Part shown: positions 3,101 through 30,548 of the stretch, in pieces
Layout of the letters: every line of letters starts with the position of its first letter
Position numbering within the stretch: position 1 is the first letter of the stretch
Assembly (NCBI GenBank): GCA_025924495.1
Contig: JAICIG010000025.1
Coordinates: forward strand, 1-31,254
DNA: 31,254 bases
Direction: 5' to 3'
Origin: Pirellulales bacterium
GTDB taxonomy: Bacteria > Planctomycetota > Planctomycetia > Pirellulales > JAICIG01
The notes under the pieces: model-generated
Seen by the model: the letters and a program-made list of their open reading frames with translations, nothing else
What the model was told of the DNA's origin: nothing
Database searches by the model: none
Translations under genes and position numbers: made by a program

Positions 3101-6100
3101 GACGCCGCTCGTCGGCCAAATGCCGCAGGTGCAATCGCGAATTCAACTGATCTATCAGATTCGCGATGTCACAGGCTTGCAAGTTCGGAACTACTACGGG
3201 AACCAATCGCGGCTCTGGGCGCCGGGCGATTTCGGACAGGCGCGGATGGCGGCTCTGGCCTGGCTGTTGGCTTTCGCCGAAAAGGACGGCAAGCAGGACG
3301 CATTTCTCGCCGAACAAAAGCAGTCCCGCGACGAGGTGGAAAAGTCGGACGATGCCAGCCGCCGGCTTCGCGCACGATGGGATTGGTATTATCTGCAAGC
3401 CGTCCGGCAGGACTATCCGGCCATGTTCGAAGCTGCGCGAGCGCTGGCCGACGGTGACGATCCGTCGGGGCAATGGGTTTATCTGGCGTCGCTATCTAGC
3501 CGGACCGTAACGCCCAATCGCACGACGACGTCGCGCTCCGCCGGCGGCGGCGACGACGGCATCGAACCCCTGGCCGCCGACGAACTACAGCGGATGCTGG
3601 CCGCCTATCGCAGCCTCCGCAAAAAGCGGCCCGAGTTTTTCGCCCAGTCAGGCTACTACGGGCAGTTGGCGCTCAACAACGTGTCGTCGGAACTGCGCCG
3701 CGCCAAACGCACCGACGAGGAGCAGCAGATCTATGCCGAAGCGCTCGACGCAGTCGACCAGAGCGCGAGCATCGTCTCCATGCTGTCTTTCGCCGGCCAG
3801 CGCGGCGACGCGGCAAAAGCGATTGAACTGCTCGACAAGCTCGGCCGGCAGCACGGCAATCGCCGCGGTCCGATCGGGGCGAACTACTCGAGTTCGGTCG
3901 CTCAGGCTTTGGCCCAATTGATGGGCAAGCAGGCGGAAGCCAAGCAACATGCCGAAGTATTGCGGCTGTACGACCGCTACTGGGCCTACGTCTTGCAGCA
4001 GAAACGGGCTGCGAGCCGCCCCAGTTCGACTCGCCGCTCGAGCACGAACGCGAATTCGCCTTATTACCAGATCTATGGCGCATCGAATGCGACGAACGTC
4101 CGCATTTCTTTCCCGCTGCCTAACGATTATTTCGATGCGGGCGGCATCATGCTGTTGCGCAACGCGTACGAAATCTACAAACGCGACGACTTGCTGAGCG
4201 ACCTTTTGGCGCATCTGCGCGCGGCTGCGGCCGATCCCCAGCGTGGCGCGGACCGTATCTACCCGCAGTTGGCCGTGGCCTATGTCGAGTCGTGGCAAGA
4301 ATCGCCGCGCGAAGCAGTCGATGAATTCGCCCGGGCCTGTGAATTCGCACCCGACGATTTAGACCTGAAGCTCGAACTGGCCGAATTGTGCGAAACGAAC
4401 GGCGACCTGGAGGAGGCCTTGGAATTGGCCGACACGATCACGCCCTTGGATCAGACGACCATGCAGCGCCGCGAGCTGCTGGCCTTGCGCGTGGCAGTGC
4501 GCTCGGGCGGCATCGAACGGGCCAGGCAGGCGGCCGAGCGGCTGTTCGGGCTGCGGCTCGACGCCGAACTGCAGGTCGAGCTGGCCGCTCAGATGCGACA
4601 GTTGGGGATGCACGATCTGGCCGAAGCAGTGGTCTCTCGCGCTCGACGGCAGGCCGGCAATCGCACTGCGGCGCTGGTGGCGTTGATGTTGCAATATCAG
4701 GGCCAGAATCAGCCCGACGTCGCAGCTCAGGTGGCGCACCAGATCTTGCGCCGCGCCCCTGCTCGCCAGAACAATCTCAACTCCGGGCAAACCAGCGAAG
4801 ACGTCGCCCGCGCCCAAGCTATTCAGGTGCTGGCGCGGCTGGGCAAGCTCAAGGAGATGATCGAGCGGGCCGAGGCTCAGCTGAAGAACTCGCCCCACTC
4901 GGTGCAGATCCATCAGACGCTGGCGGAATACTACCAAGCGGCCGGGGACCGCAAAAAGAGCGTCGAGATGTATCAGCAGATGGCCGCTGCCCGGCCCGAC
5001 GACGCGCGGCTGCAATACCAAACGGCCCAGCAATTATCGCAAGCCGGCGATCCTGCTGCGGCCGTCGAACATTACGTCGCGGCGATCAAGAAGGAGCCGC
5101 GGCTGTTTCGCAACAATTATTGGCAGGTCGAACAAACCTTCCGGCAGGCCAAGAAGGAAGACGACCTGATCAAGCTGCTGGAAGAAATCGACCTGAAGTC
5201 ACTCGGTGATTACAACACCATCACCAACTTGATCCAGAACATGACGCGCACCCCCGAACAGCGCGCCCAGGCGATGAAATTGTTCAAAATGGCCTGGGAG
5301 GCGTTTCCGACCCAGCGCGACCAGCTCCTTGGCCGAATTTATGACAATCAGTTTTGGACGCTGCCAGAGGCTTACGGCTATGCCCGCGATGCGATTATCC
5401 CAAAAGCTGGCGTGGCGCCGGCCGACGCCTGGTCGGGAGTCGCCAGGGTGATGTCGTACAGCAGCGACGGCCGGGTGAACAGTCTCGTCACCCGCTTTTT
5501 GGACGCCGCCGCTCAGCGCAACGATTTGGAGTCCGTCGAGGCGGAATTGAAAACGGCCGTCAAGAACTTTCCGCAATGGACGGGCGGCAAGTTGCTGCTG
5601 GTGCTCGTTCAGACTCGTCGCGGCCAGCCGGATCAAGCTCGCGCCGCGATCGAGGAACTGCTAGCCAACCGGCGATCGCCGCTGCCTTCCTATGTTTGCT
5701 GGGTGGCGGGTCAGGAACTGGAAAACCGCGGCGAATTAAGCGACCTGGCGATAAAGCTTTATGAGAGCACGATCGACAACGCTGACGTGCGGCTCGACTA
5801 CAGTTACAGTCCGCTGAAACGCCTGGTCGGCATCTATCATCAGGCGGGCCGCGACGAAGAGGCTCGCGCACTGGTGCTGAAGTTGGCGAGGGACAGCAAC
5901 TACGACAATTACGATCCGAGTTACGCCGCTTATCAGCGAGTGGAAAACCGGACGGCGATCGGCCAACAACTGCTCGAATTAGGTTATGTCGCCGATGCTG
6001 CGAAAACCTATAACGATCTGATGGCCGACAAAGAATCATTCGAAATCTCGCAACAATTCGGCGGGCGGAACTACCAGCAGCAAGCCGAGCAAGGGCTGGC

Positions 6101-9100
6101 CAAGGCGATGCAAAACCTCAAGCCCGAGAATTTGCGCCGCACGATTGATTCACTTTTGAGTCCGCCCAAGGACGATGACCGAAACGGACCGGCCGTCGAT
6201 TTGTTGCTGATGGTGCAGCCGCGCGACCTTTCACGGGCCGAACTGACGAGCATGCTGGCCCGCGTGTTGAAGTCGGCCGAAGCGGATCCCAGTTCGCGCG
6301 CAAGCGCCAGGTCCAAGGCCAATGCGCTGGCCGGCGACTATCCGGGCGATTTCTCCGCGCAGATCGCCGCCGCACTGGCCGCGTTCGCCGGCGGCCAAGA
6401 AGACGAAGTCAATACGGCCGTCGAACGGCTGCAGAAGCTGGTTGCCGAGACGCCGCTGGAAGAGGTCGCCGAGGGCGACCGGCCCAACTCGCGTCAGCGG
6501 ACTGAGGCCGCACAGCAAGTAGGCCTCTGGCTGGTGGCCCGCGAGTGCCTGAAGCGAGAATCGCTTCGCCCAATGGGCGACCGACTCGCCGTGCGGGCCT
6601 TGCAGGCCGCTCGCCGGCAGCTCGATCCGATCTACGCGTTGGCCATGCTCCGCGAGCGAGGACAGGCCGAGTTGGACCGTGGCGACCGGGCGGCCGCCGA
6701 GCGAAGCTGGGGCGAAATGCTCAAACTCGTGCTGCCCGAACCAAGCGAGCCCAAAAACGAGCCCGGCAAAGCGGCTCGGCCGGCCCAGGGCGTCAAGAAA
6801 AGCGCCCGACTTGGCGTCGTCCGAGACGACGTCGCCGCCTGGCATCGACCATGGATTCCGCTCGCCGCGTCGTTGATGTTCTTCGCCGGCGACGCATCCG
6901 CGCAAATCGCCTTTGCCGAGAATGCCGTATTGATGTCGCAGCTCGCCTGGCTCGAACCGCTCGAGCGTCTTGAGGCGGCCGGCGCCGAGCGGCGGCCGCC
7001 TGTGTCAGGCGCCAAGCCGCCGCAGAAAACGTCGGGCTTGCCTGCCGCCACTCTTGAACAATTCGACCAAGCGCTGGAGATCGCCGCCTTGGCCGCAGAA
7101 CACGGCCTGCACGAGTTGAGCCTGCGAGCCATGAGAGACTCGCTGCGGCCCGGCCCGCCGGTGCTGCCAATGAAGGCCATGCAGCGCGGCGGTGTGAGGA
7201 TCGTTTCTACGTCGCCTTCCAACCGCTCGGGGGACGACCAAACGCAAATTGCCCAGCGCGTAGAAACCCGTCTCAGCCGGCTCGATGCCCTCTGGAAACA
7301 ACACGCGGCGCCGCCGGCCGACGTCTATCAGGCCCTGGCCGAGGCGGTGATGCCCCGGGGCCGCCCCGGGGAAATTCTGCTCTACGCTCCGCCATTGACC
7401 GTCGCCTCGCTCGGTCGTCCAATGAGCGCCGGCAAAATGCTCGCCGACTGGGCGGTGCGCGGCGAGTGCGCCGACCGGCTCCGCGAGCAGATTGCCAAGC
7501 GAATGCCGCAACCGTTGGCTCAATTGCCCGGTCACGTACTGCTCGCACAGCTCGCCTTGGCCACGGGCGACCGCCAGGCTGCTGCGGAGCATCTCGACTG
7601 GCTTCGCGAGCGGCTGGCCGGCGAAACCTTGCAAAACTCGGCTGAGCTGGCCTGCCACGCGGCGCTGCCCGCCTTGGACGATCCGGCGTTGGCTGCCAAG
7701 GCGTTGGGCATTGTCGAGGCGGCGGCCGCGAACCTTTCGGCCCAATCGCGACAGAACTCCAACGACGAGCCGGCAGCCAGCTTGCTGCTACTGGTGGCGC
7801 GCCATCAGTTGCGCACCGGCGCGGCCGAAGCGGGCCGCAAGACGTTGCAGAATTATCTGGCAGTCAGCCAGCAAATGAACGTTCGCTATTCGGGCGATTA
7901 CGGCGTGTACCGCCGCAAGCAGCAATTGGCCAAGGCGGCTTACGAATTTGCTGTAGCCAAACAGGTCGAAGACGCGCTCGACATGCTCGGGCAATACTCC
8001 GACACGACGATCGCCTCCAATTACGGGCAGATCGATGTGAGCCAGGCCACGGTCGCCTTGTTTCGCCAACTCGGCTCCATGCCCGCGGCGGAGCGTTACG
8101 AGAAGCTCAAGCAGTGGTCGCTACCGGCCAAAGACCGCAAAATCGTTCGACTGCTGGCAGCGTTTGTCCCCTACGAGAATCTGCCCGAGGCGTTCGCTGG
8201 CGCGGCCGGACTCGCGACCCCGGCCCACGCTACCGGCAATGTAGAAAGCACGTTGACCGCGCTGGTCGAGGCGGCGCAAGCGAGCGGCAAGCTTGAAGAA
8301 TTGGCCGCAGCGGCTCAGGCGGCGGTGAATGATCCGAACCAAAAGATCGAGAACGCCGGCGCGCTGGCCGTGCTCGTCGAATTGGCACAGGGACGGCCCC
8401 AGGAAGCGCGGCGCGCGGCCGAAGCCGTCAAAGCTCAGTTGTCCGAGAGCACTCCGCCCAAGGAAGATCGTGCGCAGCCGACTCGCTGGGGAGACTACCT
8501 GGCGGCCCGCGCCTGTGCGGTCAGCTCGGAGTTGAACGACCTGGGCGGCGAGTTGCTTAGTTCGATGCTCATCTACGCCCAACGGACGCAGGACCAGGCG
8601 ATGATCGCACGATTGCGGATTGACCTGGGAGAATTGGCGCTCAAGCGCTGCGGCGCCGAGCGGGAAGACCATGTGGCCCGATTGATTCCTTGGCAACCGG
8701 CAGTCTACCTGGATGCTTCCGCGCATCGCTCCGGCGCCGCCAAACCCTGGTGGGCCGCCGACGGTAAGCAGGCCGTGCACGTCGGCGGCGCTGCATCGGA
8801 TCACTTGGTCTTCAACTACCCGTTGACTGGCGAATTCGAAATCTCCGCCGATCTGCTCGACGGCGCATGGGGTGAAGCCAATCTCAGCTTTGGCGGCCTA
8901 TGTCTGGATGCATATGCCTTCTCCCAGAACGCCCTCGTCTATCCACCCGGCCGTCACGAGCAGCTTGTCAGAAAGGCGCCCTCGATTCGTTCGGGTGCAT
9001 TCAACCATTACCAAGTGCGCGTCGACCCCGGCAGCGTGCAGTTCCTGATCAACGGGCAAACGATCTATCGGGAGAAGGAGCCGAGTTCGGCCGCGCCGTG

Positions 9101-12100
9101 GCTGACGCTATTTACCAATCGCGAGCGGCGCACGGCGTTTCGCAACGTGCAGATCAAGGGCCACCCAAAGATTCCACGCGAGGTGCAACTCGTCGTCGGC
9201 GACCGGCTCGACGGCTGGCTGGCGAATTTCTACGGGGAAAGCCAGCCCGCCCGCATTTATCAGGGCGCGCCGAACGATAATTCGGGCGGCTACTATCGGT
9301 TTGGAAACCGAAGCTTTTACGACTACGACTGGCGGGCCGCCGACGGCATCATCCGCGGCGGCCGCGCGTCCGGGCTAGCCCCAGGCGCGCAAAGCCGCCT
9401 CTACTATATGCGACCGCTGCGCGACGGAGAGTCGTTGCGCTACGAGTTTCTCTACGAGCCCGGCGCAACACATGTCCATCCAGCGCTCGACCGCCTTGTC
9501 TTCCTGCTCGAACCGGACGGCGTGGCGCTGCACTGGATGACGGACGGTGAAGCCGACGCCGGCCTAGCCTCGGACAATGTCGCCTTCGAGTCGGCCAGGC
9601 GCCGCGGCCCTGGCCGGTTGCCGCTCAAGGGGAATGAGTGGAACGCGGTCGAATTGCGCCTCGCCGAGGGCGAGGTCGCGCTGAAACTCAATGGCGAAGA
9701 AGTCTATCGCCGGCCGATGGAAGCCAGCAACGACCGCTTGTTCAGCTTCTTTCACTTCAAAGACCGGACGGCGGTCCAGGTGCGGAATGTCCTACTCGCG
9801 GGCGACGATTGGCCGCGAGAGCTAAGCGAAACACAGCTCGCAAACCTGCTCTCGCCGATCGATCCCAAAGCAGACATTGACCCAGGCCGGCTGGCCGAAA
9901 TGCTGCTGGGCGAAGAAAATGTCTACCTCGGCACGTGGCAGACCTGGCAAGCTTCGCGATCGCTTCCGGCGGCCCAGCGATATGCGCTGCTGCGCGACTG
10001 GGTCTTGCCCGGCTCTGTCCATGGCTCGGTTGTGCGGATGTACGGCGACTTTACGCCGACCGACCCCGCGCCGCCCGTGGCGGAATCCGTAAGCGCGCCG
10101 TCGCCGCCGCTCGACGATGCTTTTCGCCGAGTGCATCATGGAGGCGACCTGGTCGGGCCAGCATTCGAGCTCGTCTCTATCGCCATCGCGTTAGGCAAGC
10201 TCGATGAACTTCGCGCAGAGGTCGAAGCGCGCGGGGCGCCAGACAAATATACCGAGCAGAGCAAAATGGCATTGTTGACGCTGATCGCCGTCGCGGCTGA
10301 AGACGACGAGCGGGCTCAGCAGTCGCTCGCGATGCTTTATCCGCTGGTAAAGAATACACCAAAAGAAGAAGCGGAACACCTGCGCTGGCCGGCGCTGGCG
10401 GCCGCCTGGGCGGCGCGTCAACGCCCCGCCTTGCAGCCGATTGCCCTAACCATGCTGAACCAGATCGCCGACGGGAGCCAAGGGACCGGCGCCCGCTGGG
10501 AGCGCATCTCGCGCCACCTGCGCGCCCGGGCGCTGCTGACCTCACGGCCGGATGGGAATGTCGCCTACGGAGCGCCGCTGGCGCTCAATCAATGGCGTGA
10601 GGCGAACCACCCGACTGCCTCCAGCCGGGGCAACGGGCATCCGAGGATGCACTGGCAGCATCGCCCCGGCGAGCTCATGCACTATGCGGGACACGACCAC
10701 GATTACGTCTACTTCGGCGTGCCGCTGCAAGGCGACTTTGAATTGGAGGCCGAGCTGACTACATTCGGTTGGCGCGAGGTGACGACGAGTTACGCCTCGC
10801 TTGCGTTCGGAGCCCTCTACGACCAAAAGAGCTACTGGTTATCGAGTTTTGAACGCACCCGCCCCAAAGGCGCCATTGCCCCGCCGCTTGAATGGCTGGG
10901 CCAGTGGTATCGCTACCGCCTGTCGGTTAAAGACGGGCAATACGCGGCGTTCGTCAATGACCGGCAAATTTTCAGTGAACGTCTGCCCGAACACCCCGAC
11001 CCGTGGCTGGCGTTTCATTGCTGGGGGCCGTACCTGGGCGAGGTGCGCCAGGTACGCATCACCGGCTCTCCCAGCGTCCCCGAGACGATCAACCTGTCGG
11101 CCGCAGCCAATCTCGACAGTTGGCTGGCAGAGTATTACGGGGAGTCGGTCGCAGGCGACAATGCCGCTTGGTCGAAGCGCGGCGAGGAGATTTTCGGACG
11201 CAAGTTAGCCGATGCCGGCGAAGGCGTACGCCAGAGCCTGCTCCAATACCATCGTCCGCTGTTCGAAGACGGCCAGATCGATTACGAATTCTACTACCAG
11301 CCGGGCGAAGCGGCCGTGGCGCCAACGCTCGATCGGCTGGCGCTGCTCCTCGAACCGTCGGGCGTCGCCGTCCACTGGCTGACCGACGCCCAGTACGATC
11401 GCACTGGCCTGACGCCCGACAACCGCGCGATCGAGCAACAAAACCGCCGCGGTCCCGCCGTGCTGCCGCTGAAAGAACACGCCTGGAATCAGGTCCGGCT
11501 GTCGCTCACGGCAGACACGATCTCGCTCCAGCTCAATGGCATGGAGATTTACCAGCGTAATCTGGAGCCGACGAATCAGCGCATGTTCGGCCTTTACCAT
11601 GACGCCGCAAACAGCGAGGCTCGCGTGCGCAACGTGATCTACCGGGGCGACTGGCCGAAGTCGCTCCCCGCGCTGGCTGACCAGGAACTGGCCGCATCGC
11701 CGGCCGACCGCGCTGTGCTCGATGCCAAGAAGCTGACGGCCCAATTAAAATTCGATTTTCGGGGCAATAAGCCGATTCCCGGCGAGTTGGCGCCCGTTCC
11801 CCAAAAAGCGGCAACCTTCATTTCCCGGTCAGGCGCCGGGGCCAAGATCGTGTTGCCTGTCGGACAAGAAAAGCCCAACGCGGTCGGCTATGAGACTCGC
11901 TTCCGGCTGCGCGGCGACTTTGAAATCGTTGCGACGTACAGCGCGTTGAAAACGACGCCCGCCCCTAAGGCCTTGGGACCAGGAATCGATTTGCATCTGC
12001 GGTTGGATGGCGCCGACACTCCTGATTTGATAATTGAACGCCGGCATCTTGAGGACGGCCGGCAGATCGCCGAGTCGTTTTTCGCTTTCGAACTGCCCGA

Positions 12101-12374
12101 AAAGCTTGGCCGGTCGATGTTGATTTCCGCCGACCCGGCGCCATCCGCGGCCGGAAAACTCAAACTCGTGCGGAAAGGTCCGGTCGCCTACTATCTTTTC
12201 GCCGAAAATTCCGACGACTTCCGGTTGATCTCCGAACAATTGGTCGGCGAAGCCGACGTCTTGCGAGCGCAGATCTACGGCCGCGCCTTCAGCAAAGACA
12301 GCGGAGTCGAGGTCATCCTCGAGCAGTTGTCGATTCGCGCCGAATCGTTCACAGCACCCGATAAGTCTCCCTGA
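156..12374 (+). CDS. Giant exported TPR-repeat protein with duplicated DUF1583-like beta domains (4072 aa)
   Basis: The start is supported by AGAGGAG at 141-147 and by a clear signal peptide (MTRWMLALRMFLVALLVLAAGQAARA, cleaved near residue 26). Residues about 30 to 2640 are alpha-helical with many TPR-like units (recurring A..Y...L...P.(D/N)). They are interrupted near residues 972-1050 by a non-TPR linker, and near residue 1300 by a Ser/Thr/Arg-rich low-complexity stretch. The last third alternates helical segments with Gly/Trp/Tyr-rich beta segments resembling concanavalin/LamG-type sandwiches, such as RLVFLLEPDGVALHWMTD and RLALLLEPSGVAVHWLTD. These resemble the planctomycete DUF1583 family, but I assign that from memory. 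A unit of about 630 residues occurs twice (from residues 2643 and 3271), and a third, partial beta domain closes the protein after about 3865. No catalytic motif is visible. A role as an envelope or extracellular protein scaffold is inference. Translation is probably coupled to the upstream adaptor gene, which it overlaps by 4 bp. Many antisense ORFs here are high-GC shadows. Confidence 0.93.
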   Translation: MTRWMLALRMFLVALLVLAAGQAARAQDDADEARERQIIERFMTVLEKNPRRGTALDRIYGYHVERGTLDKLAKTYQERTAQDADDGASWMIVGLLESQRGHDAAAVAAFQQAERTDAKNYLASYYLGQSLVLVGQPEAAAAAFERAIERKPPPAELLEVFQSLGRVYQRAQRNEQALAVWTRLEKQFPDDARVQEQIASTLAEEGQHAEALTRYQKLAQATNDRYRQSLFRMEAGELELKLGQTAEALAGFETMLADLNPDSWLYREVRRRIEEAFLRNDDQAGLAKYYAGWLKKHDDDVDAMARLAHTLAAQGRVPEAQNWLEKAIKLAPSRKELRLTFIEQLVYDQRWPEAIAQYEALDKTDPDNPDYLREWGQLVLRDKSRDEAQRKQAAAKVWRRLAIARPKDPLAATQVADLFRHAEMTDEALELYRRAVELDPDSPQYREYLGEYYHTLKRSEEALTTWRAIAAGPNRNAKNLARLAEVLSGFGYLKEAVDTMGQACELEEDDFSRQLAYAELLGQDRQFDKALAQLEIAEKLAGNDEEHEGVLTQQIKIYEGAERLAAQIEALGQRLESDAKAGAGDWYRLARLREAARQLPEATAAINKSLALDGKSARALGAAARIEEASGNLLDAANTYRKLAAIDRRSRTLYLTEVAKLEARLGRRDDALAAGRELLAAAPGNPEHYEFFAELCFQLGESEEGLETLRRSLRANPSDPKVLLTLARTLADRFRTDEAIELYWRAFEKATELEPKLDMVSRLTELYLQTNHFDRLLERLERLRREARKSRELSICVAQAYHAAGDYGTAGQELVRLLSQNPSDTQLLQQLSTLMEAEGDLDEAAKYQQQLVRLAPGKETETRLALLLTRNGQTEEASAIWQRLTEREEDPEKVLSAIGSLISSGKLETALAVTDRALRERPDDWEMLYREVQALAADKPQEAAVRCRKIMALDRNDDELSSEAKALKARTARQPTGASSRQTPLVGQMPQVQSRIQLIYQIRDVTGLQVRNYYGNQSRLWAPGDFGQARMAALAWLLAFAEKDGKQDAFLAEQKQSRDEVEKSDDASRRLRARWDWYYLQAVRQDYPAMFEAARALADGDDPSGQWVYLASLSSRTVTPNRTTTSRSAGGGDDGIEPLAADELQRMLAAYRSLRKKRPEFFAQSGYYGQLALNNVSSELRRAKRTDEEQQIYAEALDAVDQSASIVSMLSFAGQRGDAAKAIELLDKLGRQHGNRRGPIGANYSSSVAQALAQLMGKQAEAKQHAEVLRLYDRYWAYVLQQKRAASRPSSTRRSSTNANSPYYQIYGASNATNVRISFPLPNDYFDAGGIMLLRNAYEIYKRDDLLSDLLAHLRAAAADPQRGADRIYPQLAVAYVESWQESPREAVDEFARACEFAPDDLDLKLELAELCETNGDLEEALELADTITPLDQTTMQRRELLALRVAVRSGGIERARQAAERLFGLRLDAELQVELAAQMRQLGMHDLAEAVVSRARRQAGNRTAALVALMLQYQGQNQPDVAAQVAHQILRRAPARQNNLNSGQTSEDVARAQAIQVLARLGKLKEMIERAEAQLKNSPHSVQIHQTLAEYYQAAGDRKKSVEMYQQMAAARPDDARLQYQTAQQLSQAGDPAAAVEHYVAAIKKEPRLFRNNYWQVEQTFRQAKKEDDLIKLLEEIDLKSLGDYNTITNLIQNMTRTPEQRAQAMKLFKMAWEAFPTQRDQLLGRIYDNQFWTLPEAYGYARDAIIPKAGVAPADAWSGVARVMSYSSDGRVNSLVTRFLDAAAQRNDLESVEAELKTAVKNFPQWTGGKLLLVLVQTRRGQPDQARAAIEELLANRRSPLPSYVCWVAGQELENRGELSDLAIKLYESTIDNADVRLDYSYSPLKRLVGIYHQAGRDEEARALVLKLARDSNYDNYDPSYAAYQRVENRTAIGQQLLELGYVADAAKTYNDLMADKESFEISQQFGGRNYQQQAEQGLAKAMQNLKPENLRRTIDSLLSPPKDDDRNGPAVDLLLMVQPRDLSRAELTSMLARVLKSAEADPSSRASARSKANALAGDYPGDFSAQIAAALAAFAGGQEDEVNTAVERLQKLVAETPLEEVAEGDRPNSRQRTEAAQQVGLWLVARECLKRESLRPMGDRLAVRALQAARRQLDPIYALAMLRERGQAELDRGDRAAAERSWGEMLKLVLPEPSEPKNEPGKAARPAQGVKKSARLGVVRDDVAAWHRPWIPLAASLMFFAGDASAQIAFAENAVLMSQLAWLEPLERLEAAGAERRPPVSGAKPPQKTSGLPAATLEQFDQALEIAALAAEHGLHELSLRAMRDSLRPGPPVLPMKAMQRGGVRIVSTSPSNRSGDDQTQIAQRVETRLSRLDALWKQHAAPPADVYQALAEAVMPRGRPGEILLYAPPLTVASLGRPMSAGKMLADWAVRGECADRLREQIAKRMPQPLAQLPGHVLLAQLALATGDRQAAAEHLDWLRERLAGETLQNSAELACHAALPALDDPALAAKALGIVEAAAANLSAQSRQNSNDEPAASLLLLVARHQLRTGAAEAGRKTLQNYLAVSQQMNVRYSGDYGVYRRKQQLAKAAYEFAVAKQVEDALDMLGQYSDTTIASNYGQIDVSQATVALFRQLGSMPAAERYEKLKQWSLPAKDRKIVRLLAAFVPYENLPEAFAGAAGLATPAHATGNVESTLTALVEAAQASGKLEELAAAAQAAVNDPNQKIENAGALAVLVELAQGRPQEARRAAEAVKAQLSESTPPKEDRAQPTRWGDYLAARACAVSSELNDLGGELLSSMLIYAQRTQDQAMIARLRIDLGELALKRCGAEREDHVARLIPWQPAVYLDASAHRSGAAKPWWAADGKQAVHVGGAASDHLVFNYPLTGEFEISADLLDGAWGEANLSFGGLCLDAYAFSQNALVYPPGRHEQLVRKAPSIRSGAFNHYQVRVDPGSVQFLINGQTIYREKEPSSAAPWLTLFTNRERRTAFRNVQIKGHPKIPREVQLVVGDRLDGWLANFYGESQPARIYQGAPNDNSGGYYRFGNRSFYDYDWRAADGIIRGGRASGLAPGAQSRLYYMRPLRDGESLRYEFLYEPGATHVHPALDRLVFLLEPDGVALHWMTDGEADAGLASDNVAFESARRRGPGRLPLKGNEWNAVELRLAEGEVALKLNGEEVYRRPMEASNDRLFSFFHFKDRTAVQVRNVLLAGDDWPRELSETQLANLLSPIDPKADIDPGRLAEMLLGEENVYLGTWQTWQASRSLPAAQRYALLRDWVLPGSVHGSVVRMYGDFTPTDPAPPVAESVSAPSPPLDDAFRRVHHGGDLVGPAFELVSIAIALGKLDELRAEVEARGAPDKYTEQSKMALLTLIAVAAEDDERAQQSLAMLYPLVKNTPKEEAEHLRWPALAAAWAARQRPALQPIALTMLNQIADGSQGTGARWERISRHLRARALLTSRPDGNVAYGAPLALNQWREANHPTASSRGNGHPRMHWQHRPGELMHYAGHDHDYVYFGVPLQGDFELEAELTTFGWREVTTSYASLAFGALYDQKSYWLSSFERTRPKGAIAPPLEWLGQWYRYRLSVKDGQYAAFVNDRQIFSERLPEHPDPWLAFHCWGPYLGEVRQVRITGSPSVPETINLSAAANLDSWLAEYYGESVAGDNAAWSKRGEEIFGRKLADAGEGVRQSLLQYHRPLFEDGQIDYEFYYQPGEAAVAPTLDRLALLLEPSGVAVHWLTDAQYDRTGLTPDNRAIEQQNRRGPAVLPLKEHAWNQVRLSLTADTISLQLNGMEIYQRNLEPTNQRMFGLYHDAANSEARVRNVIYRGDWPKSLPALADQELAASPADRAVLDAKKLTAQLKFDFRGNKPIPGELAPVPQKAATFISRSGAGAKIVLPVGQEKPNAVGYETRFRLRGDFEIVATYSALKTTPAPKALGPGIDLHLRLDGADTPDLIIERRHLEDGRQIAESFFAFELPEKLGRSMLISADPAPSAAGKLKLVRKGPVAYYLFAENSDDFRLISEQLVGEADVLRAQIYGRAFSKDSGVEVILEQLSIRAESFTAPDKSP
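8082..9965 (+). repeat. Internal tandem duplication in the giant protein, copy 1
   Basis: Protein-level repeat inside the giant gene, residues about 2643-3270. It begins with the helical segment PAAERYEKLKQWSLP, runs through a helical stretch into a beta domain (GEFEIS... near 8829), then LDGWLANFYGES (residue 3018), and ends after the RLVFLLEPDGVALHWMTD and FRNV/VRNV strands. Copy 2 starts 1884 bp later. Corresponding points are spaced 628-635 residues apart. Confidence 0.75.
9966..11690 (+). repeat. Internal tandem duplication in the giant protein, copy 2
   Basis: Second copy, residues about 3271-3845, starting PAAQRYALLRDWVLP and matching copy 1 in order: helical stretch, GDFELE beta domain, LDSWLAEYYGES (residue 3653 against 3018 in copy 1), RLALLLEPSGVAVHWLTD and the VRNVIYRGDWP ending. 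The copies are clearly diverged at residue level, so the duplication is old. Confidence 0.75.
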
Positions 12375-18838: not shown

Positions 18839-18895
18839 GCTGGGTTCCGCGCTGCCCACCGTCAAAGGTTTCTCCGTAAAGTCGAGGCCCGATGA
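18824..18895 (+). other. 23-codon ORF in leader block A, possible leader peptide or gene stump
   Basis: ATG 18824 opens MKIIAAGFRAAHRQRFLRKV and three more residues, ending at TGA 18893-18895 and overlapping the ATG (18892) of the DUF1592-type gene. Its first codons match the start of the enolase-superfamily gene (MKITA). It could couple translation to the next gene or be a relic; expression is unproven. Confidence 0.25.
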
Positions 18896-21800
18896 TGACC
18901 TGCCTCTCCGGCCGGCAATCCGCTCAGACCCCCCTGCTCAACCGGGGCGCCGGATGCTGGCCGACCGGCCGCCGAGTTGCACGGCGCGCAGTCGTTGGTT
19001 GCATACTCTGGCCGGCGTTTGTGGCGGCAATCGCTCGTGCCGGCGACTTCGAGGCCGCGGCGCCGCTTATCGCCCGATTTTGCGCGGACTGCCATGGCGC
19101 CGATAACCCCGAGGCGCACCTGAACCTGGAACAACTGCGTGCACGGCCCGATTTCGCCGCGCAGTTTCGCACCTGGGAAAGAGTGATCGAGCGGTTGAAG
19201 GATGGGCAGATGCCGCCGCCTGAATCGCCGCAACCCTCTGAACAGGAGCGGGCGGATTTAATCGGCGCCGTCGCCCAAGGATTGAATTCGTACATCAGCG
19301 AGCATGCCGGCGACCCGGGTCGGGTTGTCATGCGCCGGCTGACGAGCGCCGAGTACGCTTACTCGATCGAGGATCTGACAGGACTTCAACTGATCGATGC
19401 ACGCGATTTTGTGAACGACGCCGTCGGCGGGGCAGGTTTTACGAATGCGGGCGAGGCGCAATTCATCGAAGACGCGGCCTTGGAGCGGTACCTTGAAGCC
19501 GCCAAGAAGACGGCAGCGCACGCGGTAATCGGCGCCGGGCCGCTCGCCTTTGATGCCGATCCGGGTATGACGGGAAGAGAACTGTCGGCCATTCGCCGAA
19601 TTCAGGAAATCTATCGGCGGCACGGCTTCCGTACCGGCGCCGGCGAAGGGGGCGAACCCTTTGGCCTGGAGCTGTATCCACAGGCGTTTTATGTCGCCTG
19701 GCAGTTCCGCCACCGAGAGCTCTTGGGGCAGCCCCAAGCCACGCTGGCCGATCTGGCACGTAAGAATGGACTCGAGCCGCGATTCGCTGAATACATCCAC
19801 TCCATATTGAGCGCGCCCGTCCATTCATTTCCAACGAGCGAAATCGTGGCGCCGTGGAAAGAGTTGCCCGGGCCCGCCGCCGCCGATGAAAGTGTTCGAG
19901 ACGCGTGCGGCAAGATCTATGAGCGCCTCCGCAACTGGCAGCACATGCTGGCCTCGGCCAGTTCCGATGAAGAAGAAGCTGCCGTGCTGGCCGACGGAAA
20001 TATCGAACTGACGAGCGAGCGATCGTTCAAGGCCACGCTCGATTGGCCTGACGATGCCCGATCCGCTACCTTCGAGCTTTCTGTATTGCCAGTGGCCAAA
20101 CGAGAAGCGAAACCGCTCGTCGTTTGGCGGAACGCGCGGATGCGATTTCGCCGCGACCGGAAATGGACGCGTTACCAGCCGCTGCGCGCTCTATTGTCTG
20201 CTGAAAGCGCCGCCAAGATTCAGTTTGGCCGCCATCCCGCGGCCGCCGAAATCGCGAAGAACGATTTTGTCCTTGGAAACGCCGACCAACTCGTGATGGA
20301 GTTTGGCGTTCCAGCCGGCGCGACAAGCGCACAACTGATTGTCGATGCCGTGCTGGACGCTAAGCACGGCGATGAATGCGTGGTTCGCTGCACCATTTCC
20401 GACGGCGCCAATCCGGGCGAAACGGCGGCGTCTACGGGAACTTACTCGGCGCTGCTGGCCGATGCCGGCGGCGAGACCTACCGCTGGTTGAAGCCCGGCA
20501 TCGAGGAGTTCGCGCGGCAACTGCCGGAAATCTCACACCGCGAGCCGGCGCCTTCGGACCGCGACCCGATTCCGGCGCCGTTCGATGGCACGTACAACTC
20601 GGCCGAGCGTAATCACTTTCATGCCAAGATCAAATATCACCGCGACGATCAGTTCCTCGTCCGATACTTGCTCGATGACGCGACGCGCGGCCGCCTCGAC
20701 CAGGCGTGGGCCGATCTCTTGACGTCGTGCGACTACTACGATGAGTTTTATGGCGTGGTCGCGCGGAAGTATCAGTTGCCCGCCGATTGTCGGGTAGCCG
20801 ATTTCGACGCGACTTGGATCGCGAGCCTGCCTGTCGAGCCTCGGGTCTTCGTCGAACGGTTACATAACGATTGCCTCGCCGCGCAGCGCGCGCTTGCGGC
20901 CGCGGCGCCGCAGCACGTCGAGCAGGCTTTGGAGTTTGCCGAGCGAGCATGGCGGCGCCCTTTGAAGGCGGCGGAACAGGACCGGCTGCGGGCGTTTTAC
21001 GCGGGGCCTCGGCAGAATAATCAGGTTGACCACGAGCCGGCCCTGCGGCTGCTGCTCGCTCGTATTCTCGTCAGCCCCGCGTTCTTGTACCGCTACGAAG
21101 CGCCGCCGCCGTCATCGGACGCGGCGCCGTTAAGCGATTGGGAACTTGCTGGCAGGCTGAGTTACTTTCTCTGGTCGTCGATCCCCGACGATGAGCTGCG
21201 CCAGGCCGCGGCGACCGGGCGTTTGCATGATTCCGAGGCGCTGGTCGATCAGGCCCGACGAATGCTCCGCGATCCCAAGGCGCGCCGACTGGCCGCGGAG
21301 TTTTTTGGGCAATGGTTCGGCTTCTATCGCTTCGATCAGTATCGCGGCATCGACGGCGCCCGATTCCCCGAGTTCGGCGATTCGCTCAAACAGGCAATGT
21401 ACGACGAGGCGGTCTCGTTCTTCACGTACATTGTTCGCGAAGACCGTCCCGTGAGCGAAATGCTGTTTGCGGATTACGTCTTCGCCGACGTCCAGCTAGC
21501 GCGGCATTATGGACTTCCGGCGACGGATGCTGAGAGGCTCGTGAAAGTGGACGGAACCGGCCAATACCAGCGCGGCGGTCTGCTGCGATTGGGCGCCGTT
21601 CTGACTGTCACCTCGGCGCCGTTGCGGACCAGCCCTGTCAAGCGAGGCGATTGGATCCTGCGGCGCGTGTTAGGGACTCCGGTCCCGCCACCTCCTGCCG
21701 ACGCGGGATCGATTGCGGCCGACGATGTGCAAGCCGATGGCCAGACGCTGCGCCAGCGGCTGGAGACGCATCGCCGCAACGCGACGTGCGCGAACTGCCA

Positions 21801-22194
21801 CGCACGAATCGACCCGCTGGGGTTCGCGCTGGAGAACTACGATACCATCGGCCGCTGGCGCGAGCGATACCGCAACGATCAGCCGATTGACGCCGCCGGC
21901 GTGTTGAATGACGGCGCCGAGATCTCCGGCCCGGCCGGATTGCTTGGCTATTTAAAAGAGCACGAGCAACAATTTCATCAAACGCTTAGCGCGCGGCTGC
22001 TGGGGTATGCTTTGGGCCGCGCGGAGCTAGCTTCCGATCGGCAGCTTCTGAACGATATGGCCGGCGACCTGAAGCGAGGCGGCAAGTTTTCCGATCTGGT
22101 CGCGCGCCTTGTGTCGGGCAAGCAATTCCGCTATCGGCGCGGAAACGAGCCAACGTCCGAAACTGTTTCGCCCCGAGCGGGAGAGCAACCATGA
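18892..22194 (+). CDS. Planctomycete multidomain cytochrome protein (DUF1587/1595/1592/1588/1585)
   Basis: A 1100-residue exported protein. The leader contains [25 protein letters not shown] (about 27-51). A c-type cytochrome-like motif C64ADCH68 begins the planctomycete cytochrome segment. Further domains recognised in order are DUF1587 (about 147-205, [17 protein letters not shown]), DUF1595 (about 677-737, [19 protein letters not shown]), DUF1592 (about 743-873, [18 protein letters not shown]), DUF1588 (about 893-993, [22 protein letters not shown] and a second haem-type C966ANCH970) and DUF1585 (about 1027-1083). A long insert at about 300-650 includes a beta-rich part. The family is expanded in Planctomycetes and is always paired with a secreted DUF1552 partner; a role in extracytoplasmic redox chemistry is inferred from the two CxxCH sites. 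It overlaps the DUF1552 gene by ATGA, so the two form an operon. Start ATG 18892 has GAGG 6 nt upstream. Confidence 0.93.
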
Positions 22195-23549
22195 ACATTC
22201 GTGCGACGAAGGCTGCAACACGATCGCGTCGAGGATTCTTGCGCGGCTGTGGCGCCACGCTCGCGCTTCCCTGGCTCGAATCGCTGTCCTGGGCCGCCGA
22301 ACCATCCGACCGGCCAGCAGGTGCGGCGGACCGACCGCCCGTCCGGTTCGCTTGCCTGTTTTTCTCCAACGGCGTCGAGCCGGCTCATTGGCGCGCCCAA
22401 GGCGAAGCCGGCCAAATGAAGATTGGTCCGGGGCTGGAACCGATGCAGCCCTATCGCGAAGACATGATCTTCCTCCGCGGGCTGTACAATGAGCAAGCGG
22501 CGGAGCACAAGAGCGCGCATCTCGGCCGGGCGCCGAATCTTCTGTCCGGCGCCTGGGTCAGCACCCAGCAGAGCGAAATCCGCGTCGGCAAAACGTTCGA
22601 CCAGGTATTGGCTCAGACGATCGGAAAACAGACGGCCGTCCCTAGCCTGGTGTTAGGCATCGAACCGACCGAGTTGCGGCTGGAAGACGGGCTGTCGATG
22701 CTGTACGGCTCGAACATCTCTTGGGCCACCGATACGAAGCCGGCGACCAAAGAGATCTATCCCGCCCGCGTTTTCGATTTGCTGGTCGGCAATGGCAAAG
22801 GACGTCAACTGGACCGCAGCATCCTCGATGAGGTGCTCTCAGACGCTCGCGACCTGAAACGCCGCGTCAGCCGCTCCGACGGCGAGAAGTTGGATGAGTA
22901 TCTCGAGTCGGTACGCAGCATCGAGACACGGATTGCGCGCGCCGGCGACGATGGCCGGCTGGAAGGCTGGCGGCCGACTTTGACGAAGCCGAACATGGCG
23001 CGCCCGGGCGATCCGCTGCCGCAAGACATTCCCCTTCACATGCAGTTGATGCTGGATCTGATCGTGCTGGCGTTTCAGATGGACAAGACGCGGATCGCCA
23101 CGTGCATGTTGAACAACGATCTCTCGCAGATGAACTTCGGCTTCCTGGCAGGCGTGCACGGCAGCCTCCATCTCGATCTGACCCACAACGGCCGCGATCC
23201 GGAGCTGGAGGCGATGTACCTGAAGACGAACCAGTTCCACGTCGCGCAGTTTGCTTACCTGGTCAAACGTTTGAAGGCGATCAACGAAGGCGAGCGGACA
23301 TTGCTCGATAACTCGGTGCTGTTGTGCTGCTCGAATCTGTTCGATGGAGATAAGCACCAGGCCGACGAGATGCCGATGCTGCTGGCCGGCCGCGCCGGCG
23401 GACGTCTGAAAACTGGCCGCGTACTCGACTACCTTGCGGCCGGCGACGAGAACCGCCGAGCTTGCAGCCTGTATCTGTCGCTGATGGACTTGATGGGCTC
23501 GCCCCAGCGCCAGTTCGGCGATGCCGACAAACCGCTCGCGGGCCTTTGA
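22191..23549 (+). CDS. DUF1552 family Tat-exported protein
   Basis: A 452-residue protein with a twin-arginine leader SRRGFLRG (12-19) and hydrophobic stretch [17 protein letters not shown]1552 hallmarks are [11 protein letters not shown], a ..FLRGLYNEQ....HKSAHLG....LLSG block, SLVLGIE, and a C-terminal [16 protein letters not shown] and [24 protein letters not shown]. Ribosome-binding site GGGAGAG (22179-22185) lies 5 nt before ATG 22191, which overlaps the stop of the DUF1592-type gene (ATGA). In Planctomycetes this protein is the standard partner of the DUF1592-type cytochrome protein. The fold resembles that of DUF1501/alkaline-phosphatase-like proteins, but the reaction is not known. 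It is convergent with the isomerase gene, 61 bp between stops, with only a 5-bp GC hairpin between them. Confidence 0.93.
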
Positions 23550-28660: not shown

Positions 28661-28676
28661 TCGCCGCATCGGAAAC

Positions 28677-28707
28677 CTGGCCGCGACAAAGTTCTCTTCG
28701 CGGCCAG
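28677..28707 (-). terminator. 10-bp perfect hairpin, probable terminator of the small membrane gene
   Basis: CTGGCCGCGA (28677-28686) and TCGCGGCCAG (28698-28707) form a perfect 10-bp stem with an 11-nt loop, 20 nt after the stop of the minus-strand gene at 28728. On the minus strand the stem is followed by GTTTCC, so the U tract is short. Position and strength favour a transcript end or 3' protection. Confidence 0.55.
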
Positions 28708-28727: not shown

Positions 28728-29063
28728 TTATCGCCAAAAACAGCAGACGGCGAGAAAGATGGCGGAGATGCTGACGGCCAGACCGAATGCGCGAGGATGG
28801 CGCAAGGCATAGTGGTCGACGTCAAATCGCCAGTCGAGGCAGGCGACAATCCGGCTGGTATCGATCCAACGGCCGCCCTGCTGCGCAAGTGCCTTAAAGC
28901 AGCCCGGGCTCACCACGGCAATCAGACCGCAAATTGCGGAGAAGATCAGGATCGTCATCACGAGCGGCTGCCAGATCATCGAAACCGTTGCCATGACGGA
29001 CGACGACCAGTTCGCCGCTGCGAAGCCCATGTCGCCAAGCAATTGAATGCGCATTACGTCCAT
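28728..29063 (-). CDS. Small two-helix membrane protein, predicted riboswitch-controlled
   Basis: A 111-residue protein with two hydrophobic helices, LVMTILIFSAICGLIAVV (about 34-51) and the C-terminal AFGLAVSISAIFLAVCCFW (about 92-110). A polar middle segment, SPGCFKALAQQGGRWIDTSRI..CLDWRFDVDHYALRHPRA, lies between them. I recall a similar 'SP..F..L...GG.WIDTS...LD.R.DID.Y.L.HSR' pattern in planctomycete proteins of unknown function, but cannot name the family. ATG 29063 has GCAGG about 6 nt upstream; Met24, Met29 or Met36 would also keep the helices. About 190 nt upstream on the same strand is a c-di-GMP-I-type riboswitch with its own promoter, so expression is probably set by a cyclic dinucleotide. 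No catalytic residues are evident. A role in envelope or surface behaviour is inference only. Confidence 0.7.
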   Translation of the reverse strand: MDVMRIQLLGDMGFAAANWSSSVMATVSMIWQPLVMTILIFSAICGLIAVVSPGCFKALAQQGGRWIDTSRIVACLDWRFDVDHYALRHPRAFGLAVSISAIFLAVCCFWR

Positions 29064-29151
29064 ATCTTGCCTGCTGAAAGCACGCGAGTCTGTTGAACTG
29101 CAGAGTGAGAAAATTCAGCGTAGAGGGCCGATGGAGGGAACTCGAGGCGGG

Positions 29152-29174
29152 GCGCCGCCGCACGGCAGCGGCGC
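29152..29174 (-). repeat. Strong GC hairpin between riboswitch and its gene
   Basis: GCGCCGC (29152-29158) and GCGGCGC (29168-29174) form a 7-bp GC-only stem with a 9-nt loop, in the leader of the small membrane gene about 90 nt before its start. It could belong to the expression platform or act as an attenuator. No U tract follows on the minus strand, so intrinsic termination is not obvious. Confidence 0.4.
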
Positions 29175-29249
29175 AGGTACAGCGATGGAAAACCAACGGA
29201 CGAGCATTCATCGGCGCCGCAACCGCCTCACAAAAAGGCATTTCAGGTT

Positions 29250-29336
29250 GCAACTTCGGCAGCCTGGCGAACTCGGTTCGCGAGTCCCATGGCTTTGCGT
29301 CCCGATCTCACGATCGGTTTGCCTTTATCGATTTGC
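29250..29336 (-). promoter_or_regulatory. GEMM / cyclic-di-GMP-I riboswitch aptamer
   Basis: On the minus strand the RNA reads, in order, AAAGGCAAACC, a stem CCGATC-GTGA-GATCGG with a GNRA tetraloop (29302-29317), the hallmark GGGACGCAAAGCC (29291-29303), a second stem GGACTCG-CGAAC-CGAGTTC (29269-29287) and AGGCTGCCGAAG. Closing pairs GCAA/TTGC (29333-29336 with 29250-29253) and TCG/CGA make a P1-like helix. This is the c-di-GMP-I (GEMM) layout: two conserved purine-rich joints flanking a GNRA hairpin, beside a second hairpin that normally carries the tetraloop receptor. The aptamer, about 87 nt, lies 187 nt upstream of the small membrane protein gene. A T5 run follows at 29232-29236, with an AGGC/GCCT pairing that would compete with the 3' side of the aptamer, so the on/off mode is undecided. 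Specificity for c-di-GMP rather than the 3',3'-cGAMP variant class was not settled by eye. Confidence 0.88.
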
Positions 29337-29338
29337 TC

Positions 29339-29367
29339 GCGGCAGCGAGGCGTCGCCTTACTGCCGC
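29339..29367 (-). other. 5' hairpin of the riboswitch transcript
   Basis: GCGGCAG (29339-29345) and CTGCCGC (29361-29367) form a perfect 7-bp stem that can continue inside with AGGC/GCCT. It begins at about the predicted transcription start, 7 nt after the -10 box, and ends 2 nt before the aptamer. It would cap the 5' end of the RNA. Confidence 0.5.
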
Positions 29368-29373
29368 AAAGGA

Positions 29374-29402
29374 TATCTACGTCGCAAAGCGACATCGGTC
29401 AA
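29374..29402 (-). promoter_or_regulatory. Predicted promoter of the riboswitch and small membrane gene
   Basis: On the minus strand TTGACC (29397-29402, five of six matches to TTGACA) and TAGATA (29374-29379) are 17 bp apart. Transcription would start near 29367, just before the 5' hairpin and about 30 nt before the riboswitch. The -10 is weak, but the spacing and placement fit. Confidence 0.5.
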
Positions 29403-29552: not shown

Positions 29553-30548
29553 GTGAATGTTCCAGCCTTCGCCAGGGCAGCAGCACTGATGAAAGACGTC
29601 TTCCTTCCCAGCCAGATTGTGCCTGTCGCGGTTGAGTCGATTCGGCCGAACGCGCCGCTCGATTTCGATTTGTTTATGCTGGCTGGCCGGAAGCAAACGC
29701 CCGTGCTGTACCGGGAACATCATTATCCGATCGAAGCCGCCGATATCCGCTCGCTGAGCGAAAATGGCATCGAAACACTGTACATCGCCGAGCGCGATTC
29801 CGCCGCGTACGAGCGCTACGTGCGCGAATGGGTAATCCCCGATCGGGCGATCCCGGCGGCCGAACGCTACAAGATTCTGCGCGATATTTCCCGAGCCAGT
29901 TTCTTGCAGGCCCTGCAAAGCGATTGCCCCGCCGCAATGGTGCAGAACGCCATGCGGATGGGCGAAGAAATCGTCAATGCGATCTGCGACGACGATGTCG
30001 TGCTTGTCGATTTGTTCAGCGTGATGAAGCACGATTACTGCACGTTCATGCATGCCACGAATGTCTGTGCCTATTGCCTGGCACTTTCCACGGCGCTTGG
30101 CATGACGGACCGTACGGCGCTGATCACTATCGCCGTCGGCGCCTTGCTGCACGACATCGGCAAGCGCAAAATTCCGGCGGCAATCCTCAATAAGCCCGGC
30201 AAGCTGACCAAACGCGAATTCGAGCAAGTCAAACGACATCCTCAGGACGGTTTCGAAGAACTTGCCGAGCGGACTGATTTGGGCTGGGGGCAGCTGATGA
30301 TGGTGTACCAGCACCACGAGCGTCCTGATGGGCAAGGCTACCCGGTCGGCATTGAACAAGATGAGATCCATCCTTGGGCCGAGGTTTGCTCCGTGGTTGA
30401 CGTCTTCGACGCGCTGACCAGCGAGCGCCCCTACCGCAGGCCGATGCCGGCGTCGCGCGCGCTGGAATATCTGCAGAGCAAAGCGGGAACACAATTCAAC
30501 GCGGAGATCGTCCAATGTTGGATTCGGGTCATGACCCAAAGGCGCTGA
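29553..30548 (+). CDS. HD-GYP domain cyclic-di-GMP phosphodiesterase
   Basis: GTG 29553 is preceded by AAGGTGG at 6-7 nt and gives 331 residues; ATG 29589 (Met13) is a possible alternative. The N-terminal domain (about 15-100; FLPSQIVPVAVESIRPNAPL and ..ADIRSLSENGIETLYI) resembles the DUF3391-type regulatory segment often placed before HD-GYP. The catalytic domain has His167, the metal pair in H200-D201-IGK204, KPGKLT (215-220), His229, HHERPDGQGYP (254-264) and DVFDALTSERPYR (283-295). All signature residues of an active HD-GYP enzyme are present. The enzyme hydrolyses c-di-GMP, via pGpG to GMP, in the cytoplasm. No transmembrane helix or receiver domain is seen. The PilZ gene overlaps its 3' end by 34 bp, and a riboswitch for the same class of messenger lies 217 bp upstream on the opposite strand. 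Confidence 0.93.
   Translation: MNVPAFARAAALMKDVFLPSQIVPVAVESIRPNAPLDFDLFMLAGRKQTPVLYREHHYPIEAADIRSLSENGIETLYIAERDSAAYERYVREWVIPDRAIPAAERYKILRDISRASFLQALQSDCPAAMVQNAMRMGEEIVNAICDDDVVLVDLFSVMKHDYCTFMHATNVCAYCLALSTALGMTDRTALITIAVGALLHDIGKRKIPAAILNKPGKLTKREFEQVKRHPQDGFEELAERTDLGWGQLMMVYQHHERPDGQGYPVGIEQDEIHPWAEVCSVVDVFDALTSERPYRRPMPASRALEYLQSKAGTQFNAEIVQCWIRVMTQRR

What the first reader, a model, noticed from the sequence alone, without database searches (positions are those of the whole stretch)
29250..29402. c-di-GMP-I-type riboswitch with its own promoter and 5' hairpin on the minus strand
Seen directly: GGCAAACC, a GNRA-capped stem, GGGACGCAAAGCC, a second stem and a closing helix in the order of the GEMM aptamer, in 87 nt. 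Upstream, TTGACC-17-TAGATA places transcription start at the base of a 7-bp hairpin. Known: GEMM-I RNAs bind c-di-GMP, and a variant class binds 3',3'-cGAMP. Inference: it controls the small membrane protein gene at 28728-29063.
Basis: partly seen in the sequence, partly recalled or inferred. Interest (0 to 1): 0.8.

Follow-up and report, generated by a model that had tools for sequence, protein, structure and literature searches.

The report
Cyclic-di-GMP riboswitch beside c-di-GMP genes
A stretch of RNA before a small membrane-protein gene in a planctomycete-like bacterium looks like a standard sensor for the signal molecule c-di-GMP, and that protein resembles the membrane part of enzymes that make c-di-GMP, so the bacterium may use it to feed back on its own signal.

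Summary
Rfam finds one riboswitch aptamer, 29332-29254 (minus), 69.7 bits, E 9.2e-15. Promoter (29402-29374) and 5' hairpin (29367-29339) are there as described. Rfam's best label is c-di-GMP-I-GGC, but the three ligand-contact positions are the canonical G20/A47/C92, so I file it as an ordinary c-di-GMP-I (GEMM-I) aptamer, neither a GGC variant nor a cGAMP type. The class is common in related genomes (169 of 396); 93 of 157 examined copies (window included) precede Flp pilin genes by pattern. The window's target differs: the 111-aa gene downstream (28728-29063) is a two-TM protein whose relatives form the membrane part of GGDEF diguanylate cyclases in 7 of 18 loci; 3 more stand-alone copies lie beside a GGDEF or HD-GYP gene. 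An HD-GYP phosphodiesterase gene lies divergently at 29589-30548. A hairpin (29254-29216) overlaps the P1 strand and carries an SD-like stretch; 10 relatives share it. Best reading: c-di-GMP controls a stand-alone cyclase membrane module, a feedback device. Sign, level of control and ligand are untested. The riboswitch is a new member of a known kind; the target is the interesting part, seen so far at one locus.

The parts
29374..29402 (-). sigma-70-type promoter TTGACC-17-TAGATA
   Evidence: sequence; TTGACA-17-TAGATA at a similar distance in L247 and similar boxes in other relatives; not listed by the stricter scan
29339..29367 (-). 5' hairpin at the predicted transcript start (7 WC pairs + 1 U-G, inner GGCG/CGCC stem)
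   Evidence: fold z -4.28, 0 of 200 shuffles as good, for 29337-29367
29254..29332 (-). c-di-GMP-I (GEMM-I) aptamer; G20 = 29323, A47 = 29296, C92 = 29259
   Evidence: cmscan RF03167 69.7 bits, E 9.2e-15; contact residues from the sequence, Vc2 numbering recalled, residue roles as in passages of PMC9049102 and PMC11218506
29333..29336 (-). P1a 5' strand GCAA
   Evidence: pairs with 29253-29250
29250..29253 (-). P1a 3' strand UUGC, shared with the next hairpin
   Evidence: overlap of 4 nt with the hairpin
29216..29254 (-). hairpin GUUGCAACC...GGUUGCGGC with SD-like GAGGCGG (29229-29223) on its 3' side; candidate expression platform
   Evidence: fold -18.6 kcal/mol, z -4.05, 0 of 200 shuffles, for 29215-29256; hairpin in the same register in 10 relatives, 9 of them with AUG after it
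28894..29211 (-). possible leader ORF starting at the AUG after the hairpin; probably not a normal gene
   Evidence: ORF; codon score -0.107, between off-frame (95th percentile -0.17) and coding (5th percentile 0.21) values
28728..29063 (-). target gene: 111-aa two-TM protein, stand-alone form of a membrane module of diguanylate cyclases
   Evidence: homologs; profile match to GGDEF N-termini prob 99.5, E 9.3e-23; hydrophobic stretches 34-52 and 92-110
28671..28707 (-). hairpin after the target gene (10-bp outer stem), possible transcript end, poor U-tail
   Evidence: fold -20.3 kcal/mol; in context z -1.39, 17 of 200 shuffles as good; not listed as a terminator
29589..30548 (+). divergent HD-GYP gene (c-di-GMP phosphodiesterase class II; GTG start at 29553 possible), with HDIGK and HHERPDGQGYP
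   Evidence: Pfam HD_5 3.1e-26; full-length relatives to 73% identity; start by alignment with relatives

Best explanation
A transcript starts near 29367, carries a 5' hairpin and a canonical c-di-GMP-I aptamer, and then a platform hairpin whose 5' arm shares UUGC with the P1 closing helix. When c-di-GMP binds, P1 is held, the lower part of the platform hairpin cannot close and the purine-rich SD-like stretch is freed; without ligand the hairpin hides it. The regulated gene is 28728-29063, a stand-alone copy of a two-TM module that elsewhere forms the membrane part of diguanylate cyclases. With the divergent HD-GYP phosphodiesterase this makes a c-di-GMP feedback locus: the level of the signal sets the amount of a membrane partner that could pair with, and tune, cyclases or the phosphodiesterase. 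Shown by computation: aptamer, contact residues, 5' hairpin, platform hairpin, homology of the target, the HD-GYP gene. Inferred: ligand binding, translational control (about 0.6), the ON sign (about 0.6), action of the protein on cyclases. The confidence given is for the core: a c-di-GMP riboswitch that regulates the 111-aa gene; rival 1 shares that core.
For: Aptamer: (E 9.2e-15). Contact residues: G20, A47, C92 in the window; in 157 aptamers incl. the window, A47 = A in 154 by pattern and 3 by eye, C92 = C in 157. Platform: 15 of 157 loci have CAACC within 14 nt after the aptamer; 11 (window included) have GCAAC in register, those 11 have a complementary arm, 10 have AUG 1-7 nt after it. 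P1a helices keep pairing with changed letters (GCAA/UUGC, CAAAC/GUUUG, UGCGAAC/GUUCGCA). Target: of 18 loci of the protein family in sampled genomes, 7 are fused to GGDEF, 1 lies before a GGDEF gene, 2 lie after an HD-GYP gene; profile comparison E 9.3e-23. c-di-GMP-I riboswitches before genes of c-di-GMP turnover are known (passage of PMC7266159).
Against: No close relative of the whole locus could be fetched, and none of the 17 loci of the protein family scanned with Rfam has a riboswitch, so control of this family by a riboswitch rests on one locus. 190 nt separate aptamer and start codon, and the AUG next to the platform hairpin (29211) opens another frame. With P1 forced, the model frees the SD-like stretch of the window only slightly (unpaired 0.20 against 0.00), pairs the AUG more (0.03 against 0.38), and lies 13.8 kcal/mol above the hairpin fold; of the 8 loci that could be computed the SD stretch is freer in 6, equal in 1 and less free in 1, and the AUG is less free in 5 of 7. 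GAGGCGG is a weak SD match. L160, L162 and L164, three of the ten loci that tie the family to c-di-GMP enzymes, are among the weaker family matches (E 6e-10 to 2e-8).
Confidence: 0.72

Rival explanations
1. Same riboswitch and same target, but control is at transcription: an intrinsic or Rho-dependent terminator in the 190-nt leader is formed or prevented by the aptamer.
For: Long leader; a weak terminator-like site at 29131-29115; in some relatives a downstream strand GCGUCUCG..CUCGCG plus U-run pairs with the aptamer core, z -3.5 to -4.3 in L253, L257, L270, L275, L283 and p 0.02 in L266, L269.
Against: The window shows no such strand (p 0.64); terminator-like sites in the region are no more than chance (2 found on both strands, 1.4 expected).
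Confidence: 0.25
2. The riboswitch controls a leader peptide from AUG 29211 (or another short frame), and the 111-aa gene is regulated only indirectly or in the opposite sense because the frames overlap.
For: The AUG after the hairpin is present in 10 of the 11 loci with this hairpin; in L175 and L269 the frame runs into the main gene.
Against: Codon score of the window frame is -0.107, below the coding range; lengths and sequences of the leader frames differ among relatives.
Confidence: 0.15
3. An altered-specificity GEMM variant: c-di-GMP-I-GGC or a cGAMP riboswitch.
For: Best Rfam label is c-di-GMP-I-GGC; in 17 compared places of 8 relatives RF03167 has the better E-value in 16.
Against: The RF03167 consensus has G where the window has A47 (alignment); by bit score the general model RF01051 is higher in 12 of the 17 places; G20 is G, whereas cGAMP types have A there (recalled).
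Confidence: 0.05
4. The transcript serves the divergent HD-GYP gene (shared promoter region, antisense effect) and the small gene is incidental.
For: The HD-GYP start is only about 190-220 nt from the predicted transcript start.
Against: The riboswitch transcript runs away from HD-GYP and does not overlap it; the small gene is real and of a c-di-GMP-linked family.
Confidence: 0.04

Closest known systems
c-di-GMP-I riboswitch (GEMM-I, Rfam RF01051)
   Same: Architecture, GNRA loop, G20/A47/C92, short P1
   Different: Its target: stand-alone membrane module of diguanylate cyclases. I saw no such target in the listings of searches (listings only; held library only)
c-di-GMP-I-GGC (RF03167)
   Same: Scores over its gathering cut-off
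   Different: Has A, not the model's G, at the A47 position
Vc1 and Bc1 riboswitches (PMC4744006, PMC11218506; passages read)
   Same: c-di-GMP-I with a long leader: Bc1 up to 220 bp between aptamer and start codon, Vc1 a 5' UTR of 225-244 nt in all
   Different: Bc1 has two clear terminators and acts on transcription and translation; Vc1 has no apparent terminator or anti-SD; the window has a P1-overlapping hairpin with an SD-like arm
GGDEF diguanylate cyclases of related genomes with an unnamed N-terminal membrane region
   Same: The target matches that region (E 9.3e-23)
   Different: The window protein has no GGDEF domain

Membership tests
c-di-GMP-I riboswitch | Covariance-model match over the curated cut-off | tested here: met
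   Match in the c-di-GMP-I clan over cut-off, E 9.2e-15; RF01051's own score for the window is not shown by the tool
c-di-GMP-I riboswitch | Ligand-contact residues G20, A47, C92 | tested here: met
   29323 G, 29296 A, 29259 C; numbering recalled
c-di-GMP-I riboswitch | Binding of c-di-GMP | not testable with these tools
   needs in-line probing
c-di-GMP-I-GGC | G at the A47 position (meaning of the name is my reading of the model consensus; original paper not held) | tested here: not met
   A in the window and in the 156 relatives examined (three by eye)
cGAMP riboswitch (GEMM-Ib) | A at position 20 (recalled) | tested here: not met
   G at 29323
Translational (SD-sequestering) riboswitch | SD hairpin mutually exclusive with the ligand-bound helix | tested here: inconclusive
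   Overlap of 4 nt in the window, 0-4 nt in relatives; model accessibilities mixed
HD-GYP phosphodiesterase (neighbour) | HD domain plus HHExxDGxGYP (motif recalled) | tested here: met
Diguanylate cyclase (target) | GGDEF domain | tested here: not met
   No Pfam or NCBIfam hit in 28728-29063; only the membrane region is shared

The most novel reading that the evidence does not exclude
In this planctomycete lineage c-di-GMP controls, through a riboswitch, a free-standing copy of the membrane module of diguanylate cyclases, which pairs with cyclases (or with the neighbouring HD-GYP enzyme) and resets their activity: a membrane-subunit feedback device for c-di-GMP of a kind I have not seen described.
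Probability: 0.3. Interest if true: 0.68.

Novelty: new member of a known kind. Interest (0 to 1): 0.47.

Why it matters
The survey suggests that in this planctomycete order a c-di-GMP-I riboswitch stands before many pilus and surface genes, and the window links the same sensor to an unnamed membrane family found on diguanylate cyclases, which makes a feedback hypothesis directly testable. In the listings of searches I saw no paper on planctomycete c-di-GMP riboswitches; two papers hold all three words of one search but were not opened. It also warns that the Rfam label c-di-GMP-I-GGC should not be read as an altered ligand in this group.

Tried and rejected
The GGC label as an altered-ligand variant: rejected on A47; bit scores favour RF01051 in 12 of 17 compared places, E-values favour RF03167 in 16 of 17. 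cGAMP type: rejected on G20. Anti-aptamer terminator in the window: tested, p 0.64; over the 157 loci p of 0.01 or less occurred in 7 and of 0.05 or less in 10 (about 1.6 and 8 expected), so it holds only for a subgroup with a shared sequence. Pairing of the P1 5' strand with downstream sequence: window p 0.49, although 12 of 157 loci reach p 0.01. Search for GGDEF and HD-GYP motifs around the riboswitches rang only in the window, but it is a weak control: the window's motif lies about 1 kb upstream on the other strand, and only 33 of 156 relatives had 1.2 kb upstream to search. First codon-score run had the leader frame off by one; corrected. Closest relatives of the HD-GYP (60-73%) are proteins of public contigs I could not fetch; 396 genomes of the order and 119 of one family gave relatives to 47% only. 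RNA scan of 20 loci around HD-GYP relatives (L118-L134, L001, L002, L005; the other HD-GYP loci were not scanned): 0 matches. Family-level searches around two small-protein hits gave nothing new. A second profile (A5) in the same 396 genomes gave the same 17 places. No structure prediction was run. The inverted repeat in the promoter spacer was not followed. The paper that defined the GEMM variants is not held.

Full report
CHECK. cmscan over the whole window finds a single match over any cut-off, RF03167 c-di-GMP-I-GGC at 29332-29254 on the minus strand, 69.7 bits, E 9.2e-15, full length. The promoter TTGACC-17-TAGATA is at 29402-29374 and the 5' hairpin at 29367-29339, the latter with z -4.28 (0 of 200 shuffles as good). 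The strict promoter scan did not list the promoter. A comparable TTGACA-like box with 16-18 spacing lies within 150 nt upstream of 14 of 36 aptamers with enough flank (window included), against 2 of 36 in a control stretch; the other 121 relatives were left out for want of flank. L247 has TTGACA-17-TAGATA at a similar distance.

WHOSE DNA. No whole genome is held for the window. The neighbouring HD-GYP protein has full-length relatives at 60-73% identity, of which the two that carry an organism name are from Pirellulales MAGs, so a Pirellulales-like planctomycete is likely.

WHICH APTAMER. Papers name G20, A47 and C92 (Vc2 numbering) as key contacts, and one calls A47 conserved in all class I aptamers (PMC9049102 passages; PMC11218506 passage). 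The window has G at 29323, A at 29296 and C at 29259. The RF03167 consensus has G at the A47 column (alignment), which I take to be what GGC means; the defining paper is not held. I gathered 156 further aptamers: L081-L088, L089-L117, and the other listed matches as L166-L284; the table was cut, so weaker matches were not examined. With the window that makes 157. A47 is A in 154 by pattern and in the other 3 (L085, L240, L251) by eye; C92 is C in 157; G20 is G in 154, A in 1 (L264), and G by eye in the 2 that the pattern missed (L185, L192). In 8 genomes RF01051 and RF03167 hit the same 17 places; RF01051 has the higher bit score in 12, RF03167 the better E-value in 16. So I read the GGC label as a matter of model fit, not of the binding site.

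HOW COMMON, AND BEFORE WHAT. RF03167 matches 169 of 396 genomes of the order of G001 (133 over the cut-off); G001 is the genome of L001, titled Pirellulales, and the tool does not name the order. By sequence patterns, the first recognised gene after the aptamer is a Flp pilin in 93 of 157 loci, another class in 14 and none recognised in 50, the window included; several of those 50 look TadE- or TadG-like or like surface proteins by eye. These classes were not checked with Pfam.

THE TARGET. The ORF 28728-29063 (111 aa) has two hydrophobic stretches, 34-52 and 92-110, no Pfam or NCBIfam hit and 16 homologs by profile, on contigs of at most 7,081 bases. Its codon score is 0.209, well above off-frame values (95th percentile -0.17) and at the low edge of coding ones (5th percentile 0.21). 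A profile of 17 members found 17 loci in 16 of 396 genomes. In 6 of them (L157, L158, L159, L161, L163, L165) the match lies at the N-terminus of a protein with a GGDEF domain (Pfam E 6e-42 to 2e-46). In L162 the small gene is followed on its strand by a GGDEF gene. In L160 and L164 it follows an HD-GYP gene. Six lie beside a RecG-type helicase gene (L150, L152-L156), and L149 and L151 have other neighbours. A class-wide search of 258 genomes found 5 with a match, 4 of them seen before; the new locus, L298, again has the module before a GGDEF domain. In all, 10 of 18 loci tie the family to enzymes that make or break c-di-GMP; L160, L162 and L164 are among the weaker matches. Profile comparison of the family (no fused member in it) with the six GGDEF N-termini gives probability 99.5 and E 9.3e-23 over 88 columns. 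None of the 17 loci scanned (about 1.5 kb flank, less in some; L298 not scanned) holds a c-di-GMP riboswitch. The combination is so far seen once.

THE PLATFORM. Directly after P1 comes UUGCAACC...GGUUGC. The 29215-29256 stretch folds with z -4.05, 0 of 200 shuffles as good. In 11 of 157 loci, window included, GCAAC stands in this register; those 11 have the complementary arm and 10 have AUG 1-7 nt later. Four further loci with CAACC nearby are not in the register; one of them, L205, also has a complementary arm but no AUG. I found this group by the motif, so it is not a blind test. z-scores of the 50-nt stretch vary (mean -1.2 for the 11, -0.9 for the other 146), so the support is conservation and register rather than stability. 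P1a pairs are kept with changed letters in relatives; the automatic search put 8 of 11 near the expected register, the other 3 (L248, L257, L275) pair there only by eye. P1a and the hairpin share 4 nt in the window, L247, L250 and L275, 0-3 nt in the rest. Forced-state folding is mixed: in the window the SD-like stretch is slightly freer with P1 formed (0.20 against 0.00) but the AUG is more paired (0.03 against 0.38), and the P1 state is 13.8 kcal/mol less stable; of 8 loci that could be computed (3 of 11 failed) the SD stretch is freer in 6, and the AUG less free in 5 of 7. So exclusivity is suggested, and the sign is a judgement (ON about 0.6).

NEIGHBOUR. Divergent to the riboswitch lies an HD-GYP gene, 29589-30548, with HDIGK and HHERPDGQGYP intact. 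A motif search found no such gene near the other riboswitches, but most of those had too little upstream DNA for a fair comparison.

READING. A canonical c-di-GMP-I riboswitch most likely governs a stand-alone form of the membrane module of diguanylate cyclases beside a c-di-GMP phosphodiesterase, which suggests feedback on the signal. c-di-GMP-I riboswitches before c-di-GMP genes are known in general (passage of PMC7266159). In the listings of searches of the held library I saw no report of this target or of planctomycete c-di-GMP riboswitches.

Noticed in passing
L081-L117, L166-L284: In the sampled order the same riboswitch class stands before Flp pilin genes in 93 of 157 loci by pattern, suggesting c-di-GMP control of Tad pili.
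   Followed up: partly
L253, L257, L266, L269, L270, L275, L283: About 36-40 nt after the aptamer a conserved GCGUCUCG..CUCGCG-like strand, mostly followed by a U-run, is complementary to the aptamer core (CGCGAG..GACGC), with a matching change in L269; looks like a terminator that needs the unbound aptamer.
   Followed up: partly
L264: Aptamer before a Flp pilin has A at the G20 position (AAAAGC), a possible cGAMP-type specificity.
   Followed up: no
24 loci, e.g. L089, L091-L093, L103, L105, L112: GGCCTGC within 45 nt upstream of the aptamer and its complement GCAGGCC within 200 nt downstream occur together in 24 of 157 loci (upstream motif in 29, downstream in 38): a possible long-range pairing around the aptamer.
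   Followed up: partly
G334:C84 92301-92376 (-) and 93257-93332 (+): Two divergent c-di-GMP-I aptamers about 880 nt apart.
   Followed up: no
window 29381-29393: Inverted repeat GTCGC-TTT-GCGAC inside the promoter spacer; could be an operator or chance.
   Followed up: no
window 156-12374 (+): A 4072-aa ORF; its first 1281 residues hold TPR repeats, the rest was not scanned.
   Followed up: no
window 18892-23549 (+): Protein with PSCyt1, DUF1592 and DUF1588 domains followed by a DUF1552 protein.
   Followed up: no
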